Part shown: piece after piece, positions 52,980 through 58,502 of the stretch
How the letters are laid out: each line of letters starts with the position of its first letter
How positions within the stretch are numbered: position 1 is the stretch's first letter
Source: an uncultured Trueperaceae bacterium
GTDB taxonomy: Bacteria; Deinococcota; Deinococci; Deinococcales; Trueperaceae
NCBI GenBank assembly: GCA_937873495.1
Contig: CALMXZ010000011.1
Location: 408,808-472,807 of the forward strand
Reading direction: 5' to 3'
Length of the DNA: 64,000 nucleotides
The notes under the pieces: model-generated
What the model was told of the DNA's origin: nothing
The model's database searches: none
What the model saw: the letters and a program-made list of their open reading frames with translations, nothing else
Position numbers and translations under genes: made by a program

Positions 52980-53534
52980 TCAGCGCCCCGTCAGGAAGAT
53001 GCCGGGCACGTCGCCGAGCGCGACGAAGCGGTCCGCCATGTCCTGCAGCGCCTGACCCGCCGCCTCGCGGAACGCCACGACCTCGACGCGCTTGCCTTCC
53101 TCCTGAGCGAGTTCGAGGATGGGGGTGAAATCGCCGTCGCCGCTGGCGAGCACGACGACGTCGGCGTGGCCTAAGCCCCTGACGATGTCCGCCGCGATGC
53201 CCATGTCCCAGTCGCCCTCGAGGCGCACGGCGCCGTCGTCGTCGACGCGGTGGACGCGCACCTTGCGGCGCTTGACGCGGTAACCGAGGCTGTTGAGCTT
53301 GCCGAAGAAGCCGTGGGCGGTGGTATCGCCCTCGCGCTCGACGACGTAGGCGTTGGCGTGCGCCAGGCGCCTGCCGCGCAAGGCCGTCTCGAGCAGCGTC
53401 TGGTAGTCGACGCTGCCGTCGAAGGTGTCGCGGGCGGCGTAGTAGAGGTTCTGCGTGTCGACGTAGAGGGCTACCCTCTGCTCGGGCCCTTCGCCCGGCG
53501 CCGGCTTCGGGGCCCGCGTATCGGCCGTCTGCAT
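52980..53534 (-). CDS. NYN-domain (PIN-like) ribonuclease, LabA/DUF88 type
   Basis: A predicted metal-dependent nuclease of 184 residues with a PIN-like fold. Acidic residues sit in VDTQNLYYAA, EGDWDMGIAADIV and LASGDGDFTPIL, matching the LabA/DUF88 group. ATG 53534 follows TAGACT by 6 nt; the GTG at 53540 lies inside the spacer and is less likely. The RNA target is unknown. The gene is convergent with the TolC-like gene and sits alone. Confidence 0.85.
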   Translation of the reverse strand: MQTADTRAPKPAPGEGPEQRVALYVDTQNLYYAARDTFDGSVDYQTLLETALRGRRLAHANAYVVEREGDTTAHGFFGKLNSLGYRVKRRKVRVHRVDDDGAVRLEGDWDMGIAADIVRGLGHADVVVLASGDGDFTPILELAQEEGKRVEVVAFREAAGQALQDMADRFVALGDVPGIFLTGR

Positions 53535-53540
53535 GGGCAC

Positions 53541-54203: not shown

Positions 54204-55367
54204 ATGTCGCGCCTCGTGAGCGCTGAATCCGTCGCAGAAGGCCATCCGGACAAGCTCGCCGACCGCATCAGCGACAGCGTGCTCGACGCCGTCCTCGCGC
54301 AAGACCCGCAGGCGCGGGTCGCCGTCGAGGCGCTCCTCACGCGCGGGCTAGCGCTCGTCGCGGGCGAGGTCACGACCAAGGCCGATGTCGACGTGCAGGC
54401 CATCGTGCGCTCCGCCGCCCGCGAGGTGGGCTACACGGACGCCGCGTACGGGTTCGACGCCGACCATAGCGCCGTCCTGATCGCCCTCAACGAGCAGTCG
54501 CCCGACATCGCCCAGGGCGTCGACCAGACCGGTGGCGCCGACCCGCACGACCGGGTAGGGGCCGGCGATCAAGGCCTCATGTTCGGTTACGCCATCGACG
54601 AGACGCCCGAGCTGATGCCCCTCCCGATCCTCCTGGCCCACCGGGTCGCGCAGCGCCTGGCCGAGGTCAGGAAGAGCGGCGTGCTCCCGTACCTCCGCCC
54701 CGACGGCAAGGCGCAAGTGACCATCGAGTACCGGGACGGCGTGGCCGCGCGCCTGCAGAACGCCGTGCTCTCCGCGCAACATCACCCCGACGTCCCCCTC
54801 GAGCGGATCAAGGAAGACCTCCTCGAACACGTGCTGCGCGTGGCGGTGCCCCAACGGTTCTTCGACGAGATGACCAGCGTGTACATCAACCCGACCGGGC
54901 GCTTCGTCGAGGGCGGCCCGACGGCGGACGCCGGGCTCACGGGGCGCAAGATCATCGTCGACACCTACGGCGGCGCGGCGCCGCATGGCGGCGGGGCGTT
55001 CAGCGGCAAGGATCCGACCAAGGTGGACAGGTCGGCGAGCTACTACGCCCGCTACATCGCCAAGAACGTGGTCGCAGCCGGGCTCGCCAAGCGCTGCCAG
55101 GTGCAGATCGCCTACGCGATCGGGGTGGTCAGGCCGGTCGGCATGTACGTCGACACGTTCGGCACCGGGGTGCTCAGCGACGAGCGTCTCGCCGAGGTGG
55201 TGGCCGCGGAGTTCGACGCCCGTCCGGCCGCGATCATCGAGCAGCTCGACCTGCGTCGCCCGATCTACACCGCGACCAGTGCGTACGGTCACTTCGGCCG
55301 CCCGGGGTTCCCCTGGGAGGAAACGCACCGCGCCGCCCAGCTAGCCTCCGCGGCCGGTCGAGGATAA
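54204..55367 (+). CDS. metK: S-adenosylmethionine synthetase
   Basis: Makes SAM from methionine and ATP. The signature [12 protein letters not shown] opens the protein, [12 protein letters not shown] lies near residue 115, and the phosphate-binding [22 protein letters not shown] near 260. Length is 387. The ATG has GGAGGT seven bases upstream. The 5' gap of about 80 nt is too short for a SAM riboswitch, and none is seen. Confidence 0.97.
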
Positions 55368-55415
55368 ACCGCGCCAGCACGCGCTTTCTCGTCTCGCGCG
55401 TCGCGGGGTTCGTGG

Positions 55416-55421
55416 TACAAG
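55416..55421 (+). promoter_or_regulatory. Possible -10 box (TACAAG) of the HemC-like gene
   Basis: TACAAG ends 5 nt before the ATG at 55427. It departs from the TANNNT pattern, so the call is weak. Confidence 0.25.
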
Positions 55422-55426
55422 TAGCC

Positions 55427-56269
55427 ATGGCCAGGATAGTTCTGGGCAATCGTGAGGGTCTACTCGCCATCCGTCACGGTCGCAGCGTGCTCGAGTTCCT
55501 CACGGACGAGTGGCCCGACCTTCAGCTACGCCTCCGTACCGTCCCCAAGGGCGGCGGCCAGGAGGGCGGCCCCCTCTTGCATGCCCTCGCGAGCGGCGAG
55601 GTCGGCATCGCCGTCGCTCAGCTGGAACGCCTCCCGCCCACGTTGCCAGACGGCATCAAACTGGCCGCCGTGCTGCGGCGCGGCGAGCCGCGCTCCGCGC
55701 TCGCCGCCAAGGGCAAGGGCGACCTAGGGGCGTTGCCGGCGGCCGCGCGCATCGCCGTCACGTCCGAGCGCGACGGCACGTTCCTGGCGGGGATCAACCC
55801 CGGCTTCCAGATCGAGGTGGACGCGTCCGCGCCGGACGTGCTCCTCGCGCGCGTAGGGGCTGGGATCGACGCCGCCATCCTCCCCGCCGCCACGCTCATC
55901 ACCCTCGACCTGCGGAGCGCCATCGACGTCGTGCTCGACGAGACCGTGTTCGCGCCCGCCCCCGGGCAGGGCGCGGTCGGGCTGCTGGTGCGCGACGACG
56001 ACGACCTAGCCTTCGAGACCGCCTACTCCCTGCAGCACCGGCCCAGCTTCGACCGCGTGCGGGCCGAGCTGGCGTTCGCCGCCGAGCTGCCCGATATGCA
56101 CGTCGGCTCGGTCGCGTGGGTCACGGAGGACGGCGAGTTGACCCTGTTCGGCTCCGTCGCGCGAGGCGGCACCGTCCTGCAGGCCTACGTCACGGGCGAG
56201 GCGCGCGAGGGCGCGGAACTCGGCCGCGAACTCGCCAAGGACGTCCGCGAGCAGTTGGCGCGCGCCTGA
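55427..56269 (+). CDS. Porphobilinogen deaminase-like protein lacking catalytic residues (HemC-fold pseudoenzyme)
   Basis: Resembles hydroxymethylbilane synthase along its full 280 residues: RIVLGNREGLLAIR at the start, LPPTLPDG near 70, APAPGQGAVGLLVRDDD near 176-192 and GELTLFGSVA near 236. The active site is lost. The catalytic Asp segment HSxKD is A64-Q-L-E-R68, the TSSLRR block reads VTSERD, and the cysteine that holds the dipyrromethane cofactor aligns with His225. It should not polymerise porphobilinogen. A binding, regulatory or other enzymatic role is open. It lies 59 nt after metK on the same strand; TACAAG precedes the ATG by 5 nt. Confidence 0.78.
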   Translation: MARIVLGNREGLLAIRHGRSVLEFLTDEWPDLQLRLRTVPKGGGQEGGPLLHALASGEVGIAVAQLERLPPTLPDGIKLAAVLRRGEPRSALAAKGKGDLGALPAAARIAVTSERDGTFLAGINPGFQIEVDASAPDVLLARVGAGIDAAILPAATLITLDLRSAIDVVLDETVFAPAPGQGAVGLLVRDDDDLAFETAYSLQHRPSFDRVRAELAFAAELPDMHVGSVAWVTEDGELTLFGSVARGGTVLQAYVTGEAREGAELGRELAKDVREQLARA

Positions 56270-56333: not shown

Positions 56334-58382
56334 TCAGGACGCGCGGGCCTGCTTCGCGTCGGCCAAGACCTTCTCGGCGACCTGCGCCGGGACCGCCTCG
56401 TAGCGGTCGATCTTCAGCGAGTAGGCGCCGCGACCACCCGTCATGCTGCGGAGGTCGGCGGAGTAGGCCTGGATCTCGGCGAGCGGCACGTGCGCGCTGA
56501 CCACGCTGACCGAGCCCTCGCTGTCCACTCCGAGGATGCGCCCGCGCCGCGTGTTCAGGTCGGAGATGACGTCGCCCGTGAAGCGATCGGGAACGCGCAC
56601 CTTGAGGAGGACGAGGGGCTCGAGCAGGATCGGCTTCGCCTGCACCAGCGCCTCGTGCACGGCCTGGGTGGCGGCGAACTGGAAGGCGATGTCCTTCGAG
56701 TCGACCGGGTGGTCCTTGCCGTCGTAGACGCTAACCTTGACGTCCTGAAGCGGGAAGCCGCCCAGCACGCCGGACTCCATGCCGGCGCGGGCGCCCTTCT
56801 CGCAGCTCGTCTGGAACTGCGTCGGGATGGTGCCGCCGACGACCTTCCACTCGAACTCGAACCCGCCGCCGCGCGGCAGGGGTTCCACGGTCAAGGCCAC
56901 CTCGGCGAACTGCCCGGCGCCGCCCGACTGCTTCTTGTGCCGGTAGCGGGCGTCGCCCTTGCCCTGGATCGTCTCCCGGTACGCGATGGCGGGCAGGCGC
57001 GTCTCGACCTCGACGCCGAAGCGGTCCTTGAGGGCCGCCACCGCGATCTCGAGGTGCACGTGGCCCATGCCCCAGAGCACCGTCTCCTTGGTGTCAGGGT
57101 TGCGCTCCAGCTTGAGCGTCGGGTCGGCGTCGAGGACCTTGGCGAGCGCGTCGCCGAGCTTGTCCTCGTCGGGCCGCGCCTTCGGGAACAGCGCCAACGC
57201 CATCACGGGCGACGGCAGGCGGATGGGCGCCAGGACGAACTCGGCGCCGGGCGCCGTGAGCGTGTCGCCCGTGCGCACCTCATCGGCCTTCGTCAACGCG
57301 CCGATCATGCCGGCCGAGAGCTGCTTGACCTCCGTCAGGTCCTTGCCGCGGGGGACGAAGACGTGCGAGGTGCGCAGGTCGGCGCCGCTGGAGGCGTCGC
57401 GTAGTGGCTCACCCGCGTTGAGGGTGCCGGACAGCACGCGCATGAACGACACCTTGCCGAGGTACGGGTCGACGACCGTCTTGAAGACGCGCGCGCTGAA
57501 CGGCTGGCCGTCGCCGAGGATGGGCGGCTCACCCGACTCGACCGGCAGCGGGCCGTGGTCGTGCACGTGCCGCACGCCTCTGGTTAGGAAGTCGAGCAGG
57601 AGGCTGATGCCCATGACCTTCGTGGCCGAGGTGAGGAGGACGGGCGTCAGCTCGTGCCGCACGACGGCCGCGTAGAAGGCCGCGAGCAGGGCGTCCTGGT
57701 CGATCTCGGCCTCCTCCAGGTACTGCATCATCAGCTCGTCGTCCGTCTCGACGACGGCCTCGACGAGCCGGTCGCGGTACTCGCGGGCCAGCCCCTCGAC
57801 CTCCGCCGGGAGCGGCACCTCAACAGGCGTCGTGCCGTCCGGCCACTCGTACGCCCGCATGGTCAGGAGGTCGACGATGCCCTTGAACTCCTCCGCCTGG
57901 CCGATCGGGATCTGGATGGCCGCGATGTTGCCGGGCAACGTGGCCTCGATGTCGGCCATCGTTCGGAAGAAGTCGGCGTTCTCGCGGTCCATCTTGTTGA
58001 TGACGACCATGGTGGAGAGCTCGCGCTCGAGGCTCGACGTCCAGACGCGTTCGGTGCCGACGGCCACGCCGGACACGGCCGAGACGAGGATGACGGCCGC
58101 GTCGGCGGCGGCCTGGGCGCCGCGGATCTCGCTCACGAAGTCAGCGTAGCCGGGGGTATCGATGACGTTGAACTCCTCCCCCTTCCACGTGAAGGGGTGG
58201 ATCGTCGAGTAAATGGAGATCTTGCGGCGTTTCTCCTCGGCCGTGACGTCCGAGACGCTCGTGCCGTCCTCCACCTTCCCGAGCGTCTGGATGGCGCCGG
58301 CGCGGAACAGGATGGCCTCGACGAGCGACGACTTACCCGCGCCGCTGTGCGACAAGACAGCCACGTTGCGGATCTGGGACAT
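56334..58382 (-). CDS. Elongation factor G-like GTPase (EF-G paralogue)
   Basis: A translational GTPase of 682 residues with EF-G domains G, II, III, IV and V in order. The nucleotide motifs are SHSGAGKSS (G1), DTPGYADFV (G3) and NKMDREN (G4). G1 differs from canonical EF-G (GHIDAGKTT), so it is a divergent paralogue and not the main fusA. Relatives include EF-G2 and ribosome-protection-type proteins. GGGAG lies six bases before the ATG. No str operon (rpsL, rpsG, tuf) is adjacent, as expected for a paralogue. Confidence 0.92.
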   Translation of the reverse strand: MSQIRNVAVLSHSGAGKSSLVEAILFRAGAIQTLGKVEDGTSVSDVTAEEKRRKISIYSTIHPFTWKGEEFNVIDTPGYADFVSEIRGAQAAADAAVILVSAVSGVAVGTERVWTSSLERELSTMVVINKMDRENADFFRTMADIEATLPGNIAAIQIPIGQAEEFKGIVDLLTMRAYEWPDGTTPVEVPLPAEVEGLAREYRDRLVEAVVETDDELMMQYLEEAEIDQDALLAAFYAAVVRHELTPVLLTSATKVMGISLLLDFLTRGVRHVHDHGPLPVESGEPPILGDGQPFSARVFKTVVDPYLGKVSFMRVLSGTLNAGEPLRDASSGADLRTSHVFVPRGKDLTEVKQLSAGMIGALTKADEVRTGDTLTAPGAEFVLAPIRLPSPVMALALFPKARPDEDKLGDALAKVLDADPTLKLERNPDTKETVLWGMGHVHLEIAVAALKDRFGVEVETRLPAIAYRETIQGKGDARYRHKKQSGGAGQFAEVALTVEPLPRGGGFEFEWKVVGGTIPTQFQTSCEKGARAGMESGVLGGFPLQDVKVSVYDGKDHPVDSKDIAFQFAATQAVHEALVQAKPILLEPLVLLKVRVPDRFTGDVISDLNTRRGRILGVDSEGSVSVVSAHVPLAEIQAYSADLRSMTGGRGAYSLKIDRYEAVPAQVAEKVLADAKQARAS

Positions 58383-58502
58383 CTTGAGCTCCCTTTCCTG
58401 TTGCAGCGGCTTGGGGCCGCGTGGTTCCAGCGAAGGCTTTGGCCCGTCGTTCACGAGTCTAGCAGGTGAGCCAAGCCGCGGCGGCAGCGCTTCGGGCGCG
58501 GT

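What the first reader, a model, noticed from the sequence alone, without database searches (positions are those of the whole stretch)
55427..56269. Full-length HemC homologue stripped of its active site
The 280-residue protein matches hydroxymethylbilane synthase throughout, including APGQG. Yet the catalytic Asp region is AQLER, one of the paired arginines is lost and the cofactor cysteine is His225. Conservation of the fold with loss of every key residue suggests a repurposed binding protein, perhaps for a tetrapyrrole or another anion, or a regulator of heme synthesis.
Basis: partly seen in the sequence, partly recalled or inferred. Interest (0 to 1): 0.7.

Follow-up and report, generated by a model that had tools for sequence, protein, structure and literature searches.

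The report
Heme enzyme kept after losing catalysis
A heme-making enzyme (HemC) in a Deinococcus-group bacterium has lost its whole active site, yet has been kept, folded and under selection for a very long time, even in species that no longer make heme, so it must do some other, still unknown job.

Summary
The 280-aa protein at 55427-56269 has the full HemC fold (AlphaFold pLDDT 94.6; TM 0.92 to E. coli HemC 1pda). It lacks catalytic Asp84, cofactor Cys242 (no cysteine anywhere), Lys83, Arg132/149/155/176 and the active-site flap. "Every key residue" overstates it: Arg11, Arg131 and Gln198 remain.

It is not a local pseudogene. 51 of 111 searched Deinococcales-group genomes carry such a copy: most Trueperaceae, nearly all Meiothermus, Calidithermus and a sister genus, and two others. 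It is under purifying selection and has its own conserved promoter element. Tree and synteny show it is the ancestral HemC. A second, intact HemC in a hem operon took over catalysis; no searched genome has both an intact ancestral copy and the newcomer.

In the window's genus the HemA, B, D and E families and any intact HemC are absent from all six genomes, yet this protein stays. That rules out endogenous heme synthesis, and its control, as its job there.

Constraint has left the cleft and sits in domains 1 and 3; two basic cleft residues are now acidic. This speaks against tetrapyrrole or anion binding. Best reading: a pseudoenzyme kept for a heme-independent, probably protein-interaction role. 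The partner is unknown.

The parts
55427..56269 (+). CDS of the catalytically dead HemC homologue (280 aa, no cysteine)
55413..55421 (+). extended -10-like element TGGTACAAG ending 5 nt before the ATG: own, probably leaderless, promoter (expression not tested)
   Evidence: TGNTACAA just before the ATG in 16 of 22 Trueperaceae copies; TACAA in 0.5% of other 14-nt upstream windows; comparable elements before Thermaceae copies
55625..55630 (+). codons E67-R68 in place of Lys83-Asp84 of E. coli HemC (catalytic Asp lost)
55769..55774 (+). codons R115-D116: Arg131 kept, Arg132 -> Asp (Asp in 22/22 Trueperaceae copies)
56090..56107 (+). former cofactor loop, P222-G227 (PDMHVG), no Cys, three residues shorter
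54204..55367 (+). metK (S-adenosylmethionine synthetase), same strand, directly upstream; found next to the gene in the Trueperaceae loci read
56334..58454 (-). EF-G-type GTPase gene, convergent downstream neighbour, conserved nearby in most Trueperaceae loci read; context only
52980..53540 (-). NYN-domain protein gene, conserved neighbour in Trueperaceae; context only

Best explanation
This is the vertically inherited HemC of the Deinococcales group turned into a pseudoenzyme. Shown by sequence: (1) it belongs to the same clade as the working HemC of Thermus, and its Thermaceae counterparts sit in the same gene place; (2) in lineages that carry a second HemC inside a hemA-C-D-B-(kinase-regulator)-E operon, or that lost the pathway afterwards, the ancestral copy has lost Asp84, Cys242 or both; (3) the dead copy is kept under purifying selection with its own conserved promoter element; (4) it outlived the loss of HemA-HemE in the window's genus. 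Inferred: HemC of this lineage had, or gained, a second job that needs the folded protein but not the cleft. Most likely the job is a protein-protein contact made by domains 1 and 3, where constraint is now highest, with the domain 1/2 cleft left to drift. The partner is not identified; MetK, whose gene is next door only in Trueperaceae, is one candidate.
For: Tree: 44 ancestral-lineage proteins (intact Thermus, f3 and f2 plus all dead copies) form one 100/100 side; the 14 replacement HemCs form another 100/100 clade. Synteny hemC-fur-folC in Thermus and in family f3, and dead hemC-fur(-folC) in Meiothermus, Calidithermus and genus g31. Distribution: 28/39 Trueperaceae, 21/22 Meiothermus/Calidithermus/g31, 2/4 family f5; no genome with an intact ancestral copy plus the replacement. 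Cys242 in no dead copy examined; Asp84 only in g31 and f5. dN/dS window vs nearest congener with a different sequence 0.14 (NG86), 0.06 (YN00); other dead-copy pairs 0.05-0.37 by NG86, one distant pair 0.53. Pathway absent in six congeneric genomes 91-98% complete (HemA, HemB, HemC, HemD, HemE), while heme-copper oxidase genes remain. Mean pairwise identity in Trueperaceae dead copies: domain 3 0.63, last domain 1 segment 0.72, domain 2 0.42; cleft entropy equals the rest (1.26 vs 1.24), whereas intact sets have 0.09-0.49 vs 0.73-1.77.
Against: No partner, no expression data and no phenotype. Some Trueperaceae (e.g. G006, G007, G008, G012, G028) and one Meiothermus (G090) lack the copy, so the job is dispensable there. 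The gene neighbours differ between families (metK vs fur-folC), so context gives no common function. Independent loss in Thermaceae and in f5/Trueperaceae is favoured by the tree but a single clade of dead copies is not rejected (p-AU 0.104). Domain 3 conservation could reflect fold stability alone. Whether the second job is ancestral or arose after the loss of catalysis is not settled.
Confidence: 0.5

Rival explanations
1. Re-purposed ligand sensor: the domain 1/2 cleft, which has a type II periplasmic-binding-protein fold, binds a new ligand, for example a cation such as S-adenosylmethionine or a polyamine after the charge reversal, and domain 3 signals it. A SAM sensor would fit the neighbouring metK.
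For: K83 -> D/E and R132 -> D in 22/22 and A170 -> P in 19/22 Trueperaceae copies show fixed new cleft residues; metK adjacency; the PBP2-like fold is seen in the structure search and stated in PMC3949521.
Against: Other cleft positions (D84, R149, R155, R176 equivalents) drift freely and mean cleft entropy is not below the rest; the Meiothermus copies have a different, still basic cleft and no metK neighbour.
Confidence: 0.17
2. Tetrapyrrole or anion-binding protein, such as a heme or porphyrin carrier or sensor.
For: Descent from a tetrapyrrole enzyme; R11, R131 and Q198 kept; the window's organism probably takes up heme or porphyrin, as it keeps ferrochelatase and heme-copper oxidases.
Against: Cleft charge largely lost and two basic residues reversed; cofactor flap, Cys and most carboxylate-binding Arg gone.
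Confidence: 0.08
3. Regulatory subunit or chaperone of the replacement HemC or another heme enzyme (prozyme-like pseudoenzyme).
For: Most genomes with the dead copy carry the replacement HemC; catalytically dead paralogues that activate their living partner are known elsewhere (e.g. PMC5201418, abstract listed).
Against: Kept in the window's genus and in G050 after loss of HemA, B, D, E and the replacement HemC; the two HemCs are from different clades with about 21-24% identity.
Confidence: 0.1
4. Slowly decaying relic without function.
For: Catalytic residues lost; absent from some relatives with no trace left behind metK.
Against: Open frame across the relatives searched, low dN/dS, confident fold, conserved promoter element, retention through a deep tree.
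Confidence: 0.05

Closest known systems
Hydroxymethylbilane synthase (HemC, porphobilinogen deaminase; PF01379, TIGR00212; E. coli 1pda)
   Same: Same three-domain fold (TM 0.92), APGQG motif, R11, R131, Q198, AE(R) motif of domain 3; descends from the HemC of this lineage
   Different: No catalytic Asp, no cofactor Cys, flap missing, R132/R149/R155/R176/K83 gone; scores 87 bits against a curated cut-off of 164
HemC of Thermus and families f2/f3 (same clade, active site intact)
   Same: Direct orthologue, 38-45% identity to the window protein; hemC-fur-folC place shared by the dead Thermaceae copies
   Different: Intact active site and the only HemC in those genomes
Replacement HemC in the hemA-C-D-B-E operon of Trueperaceae, Meiothermus and f5
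   Same: Same family, same genomes
   Different: Separate clade, intact active site, 21-24% identity to the window protein; gone from the window's genus
Pseudoenzymes that are dead paralogues of enzymes (e.g. trypanosome AdoMetDC prozyme, deoxyhypusine synthase paralogue)
   Same: Fold kept, catalytic residues lost, gene conserved
   Different: Those act on a living paralogue in the same pathway; here the pathway is missing in the window's genus
[quoted passage not shown]
   Same: Domains 1 and 2 share the two-lobed fold (Foldseek E about 1e-7)
   Different: Only partial match (TM about 0.45); extra domain 3

Membership tests
Hydroxymethylbilane synthase (HemC) as homology family | Three-domain HMBS fold and sequence profile match | tested here: met
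   PF01379 69.2 bits against cut-off 22.1; TM 0.92 to 1pda
Functional hydroxymethylbilane synthase | Catalytic Asp84 (D84A/D84N inactive, PMC3945110) | tested here: not met
   R68 in the window; Asp in 0 of 22 Trueperaceae copies
Functional hydroxymethylbilane synthase | Cys242 carrying the dipyrromethane cofactor | tested here: not met
   no Cys in the protein; Cys242 in no dead copy examined
Functional hydroxymethylbilane synthase | Arginine set binding cofactor/substrate carboxylates (R131, R132, R149, R155, R176) | tested here: not met
   only R131 kept; R132D, R149A, R155L, R176T
Functional hydroxymethylbilane synthase | TIGR00212 equivalog cut-off 164 bits | tested here: not met
   87 bits
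Functional hydroxymethylbilane synthase | Enzymatic activity, complementation of a hemC mutant | not testable with these tools
   needs bench work
Pseudoenzyme | Enzyme fold retained, catalytic residues lost, gene maintained by selection across species | tested here: met
Pseudoenzyme | Demonstrated non-catalytic function | not testable with these tools
   no partner or phenotype known
Tetrapyrrole-binding protein | Conserved basic cleft for tetrapyrrole carboxylates | tested here: not met
   mean cleft charge falls from about +5 to about +0.5 and the cleft is not specially conserved; other surfaces not tested

The most novel reading that the evidence does not exclude
HemC of the Deinococcales group carries an old second, non-catalytic function, used through domains 1 and 3. 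Whenever a second HemC took over catalysis, the native protein was repeatedly stripped to that function alone and kept, even in heme auxotrophs. Working Thermus HemC would then still be bifunctional.
Probability: 0.35. Interest if true: 0.8.

Novelty: new variant of a known kind. Interest (0 to 1): 0.62.

Why it matters
HemC is a textbook single-purpose enzyme. A conserved family of dead HemCs that survived replacement of their catalytic role, and in one genus loss of the whole pathway, would reveal an unsuspected function of this fold. It also gives a natural experiment: working (Thermus), partly altered (g31, f5) and fully dead (Trueperaceae) orthologues, some in the same chromosomal place. 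Practically, these genes pass the Pfam HemC cut-off and are likely to be annotated as hemC, so automated reconstructions could wrongly credit the window's genus with a heme synthesis step.

Tried and rejected
Local pseudogene: rejected by relatives, dN/dS and structure. A separate true hemC in the same genome: searched, none. Regulator of heme synthesis in this organism: rejected, the pathway is missing. Gene context as a functional clue: metK (Trueperaceae) and fur-folC (Thermaceae) do not agree, so neither is used as proof. Looking for a remnant behind metK in Trueperaceae that lack the gene: none found. Single origin of inactivity: AU test p 0.104, not rejected, so independent inactivation is stated as favoured only. 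Positions shared by the whole ancestral clade but not other HemCs (R19, W29, D193, Y200, R210, D272) were listed, but without model coordinates it could not be tested whether they form one surface. Deinococcus itself could not be checked: the held phylum set contained only these families. Literature searches found no description of an inactive HemC homologue. Two Meiothermus copies (L181, L182) were first read on the wrong strand and re-read.

Full report
WHAT IS THERE. The ORF at 55427-56269 (+) encodes 280 aa. It matches HemC by Pfam (69.2 bits, cut-off 22.1) and by sequences of solved structures (E. coli HemC, 2e-17), but reaches only 87 of the 164 bits demanded of a functional HemC by TIGR00212. 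AlphaFold2 with 37 aligned sequences gives pLDDT 94.6 and pTM 0.92; the 32 best solved structures are all hydroxymethylbilane synthases, 1pda at TM 0.92. The fold is intact.

THE ACTIVE SITE. By alignment to E. coli HemC, Lys83-Asp84 are Glu67-Arg68, Arg132 is Asp116, Arg149 is Ala133, Arg155 is Leu139, Arg176 is Thr159, the flap with Lys55/Lys59/Phe62 is missing, and the cofactor loop is shortened with no cysteine in the whole protein. Published work says D84A and D84N are inactive, R131L and R132L lose the cofactor, and R149H, R155H and R176H are strongly impaired (PMC3945110). The protein cannot be an HMB synthase by the known mechanism. Arg11, Arg131, Gln198 and Gly199 are kept, so 'every key residue' is too strong.

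CONSERVED IN RELATIVES. A profile search of 111 genomes of the class, together, shows such a copy in 28 of 39 Trueperaceae (family f1), in 21 of 22 genomes of Meiothermus (g25), Calidithermus (g30) and genus g31, and in 2 of 4 genomes of family f5. Of 22 Trueperaceae copies, none has Asp84, Cys242 or Lys83; Arg132 is Asp in all 22; Lys83 is Asp or Glu in all 22. Thermaceae copies lost Cys242, and Asp84 became His or Tyr, except in g31, which keeps Asp84 but lost Cys242. The second f1/f4/f5 HemC in the same genomes has an intact active site in every case examined.

ORIGIN. In a tree of 78 HemCs all dead copies and the single intact HemC of Thermus, family f3 and family f2 form one clade (100/100), while the intact second HemCs form another (100/100, 14 rows). 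Thermus hemC is followed by a Fur-family gene and folC; the dead copy of Meiothermus, Calidithermus and g31 sits before the same Fur gene, in g31 also folC. So the dead copy is the native gene and the working one is a replacement that lies in a hemA-hemC-hemD-hemB-histidine kinase-response regulator-hemE operon. No genome searched has an intact native copy and the replacement together. Dead Thermaceae copies group with intact Thermus HemC, and dead f5/Trueperaceae copies lie next to intact f2 HemC, so at least two separate inactivations are the favoured reading; holding all dead copies together costs 17.9 log units but is not rejected (p-AU 0.104).

THE WINDOW'S GENUS HAS NO HEME PATHWAY. The six genomes of the genus (91-98% complete; two have an identical copy of the protein) have no HemB, no HemD, no HemE, no HemA and no intact HemC, while the same searches ring in other Trueperaceae. 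Three of six keep ferrochelatase, and all have heme-copper oxidase genes. In the window's own genome a histidine kinase related to the one of the hem operon and ferrochelatase are left side by side (L168). G050 (f5) also lacks A, B, D, E and the replacement HemC but keeps ferrochelatase, HemF, a flavin oxidase of the HemY type and its dead HemC. The dead HemC thus outlived the pathway, perhaps twice; G050 is only 91% complete.

STILL SELECTED AND PROBABLY EXPRESSED. dN/dS between the window gene and its nearest non-identical relative is 0.14 (NG86) or 0.06 (YN00), with 56 of 80 differences at third positions. 16 of 22 Trueperaceae genes have TGNTACAA just before the ATG, against 0.5% of other upstream windows for TACAA, and Thermaceae copies have TAATAT, TACAAT or TAGTAT in the same place. 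This looks like a -10 element of a leaderless mRNA, a common arrangement in Deinococcus deserti (PMC9031893). Expression itself was not tested.

WHERE THE CONSTRAINT LIES. In intact HemC sets the cleft positions are far more conserved than the rest (entropy 0.09-0.49 against 0.73-1.77, p below 1e-6). In Trueperaceae dead copies the two are equal (1.26 and 1.24), and identity is highest in the last part of domain 1 (0.72), domain 3 (0.63) and the first part of domain 1 (0.62), and low in domain 2 (0.42), whereas in intact replacement and outgroup sets domain 3 is among the least conserved parts. Net charge over 31 cleft and flap positions falls from about +5 to about +0.5 on average (+2 in the window). 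This speaks for a job of the domain 1/3 surfaces rather than of the cleft.

MECHANISM. Shown: catalytic residues lost, native, replaced, retained, selected, independent of endogenous heme synthesis in this genus. Inferred: a non-catalytic contact function, most likely with another protein. Ranked behind it: a new ligand in an altered cleft, with SAM suggested by metK next door in Trueperaceae; an original role as helper of heme enzymes; tetrapyrrole binding; slow decay.

NOVELTY. No paper found in the held library describes an inactive HemC homologue or one in this group; the library is not complete. Pseudoenzymes are a known kind; a HemC pseudoenzyme retained in heme auxotrophs appears to be a new variant.

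Noticed in passing
L060, L062, L064, L068, L071 (hem operons): The replacement heme operon of Trueperaceae, Meiothermus and f5 has a histidine kinase and response regulator built in between hemB and hemE.
   Followed up: partly
L168:8267-10726 (window's own genome, contig C17): Apparent remnant of that operon: the related histidine kinase and ferrochelatase remain side by side, suggesting porphyrin or heme salvage.
   Followed up: partly
L170:6727-13967 (G050): Kinase, response regulator, ferrochelatase, HemF and a HemY-type flavin oxidase kept while HemA, B, D, E and the replacement HemC are absent; probable coproporphyrin(ogen) salvage.
   Followed up: partly
L081 (G083) and G107: Two Thermus genomes, one a single contig, have the native hemC split into two frames; frameshift or sequencing error.
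   Followed up: no
G039, G043, G047, G051 (family f2): Family f2 has HemB and intact native HemC but no ferrochelatase match, so heme may be finished by another route.
   Followed up: no
L052-L054, L171-L184 (Meiothermus): In most Meiothermus dead copies a Cys sits two residues after the lost cofactor Cys (GDxC instead of GC).
   Followed up: no
A1/A2 alignments, window residues R19, W29, D193, Y200, R210, D272: Residues invariant in the whole native clade, dead and intact, but not in other HemCs; possible interaction surface.
   Followed up: partly
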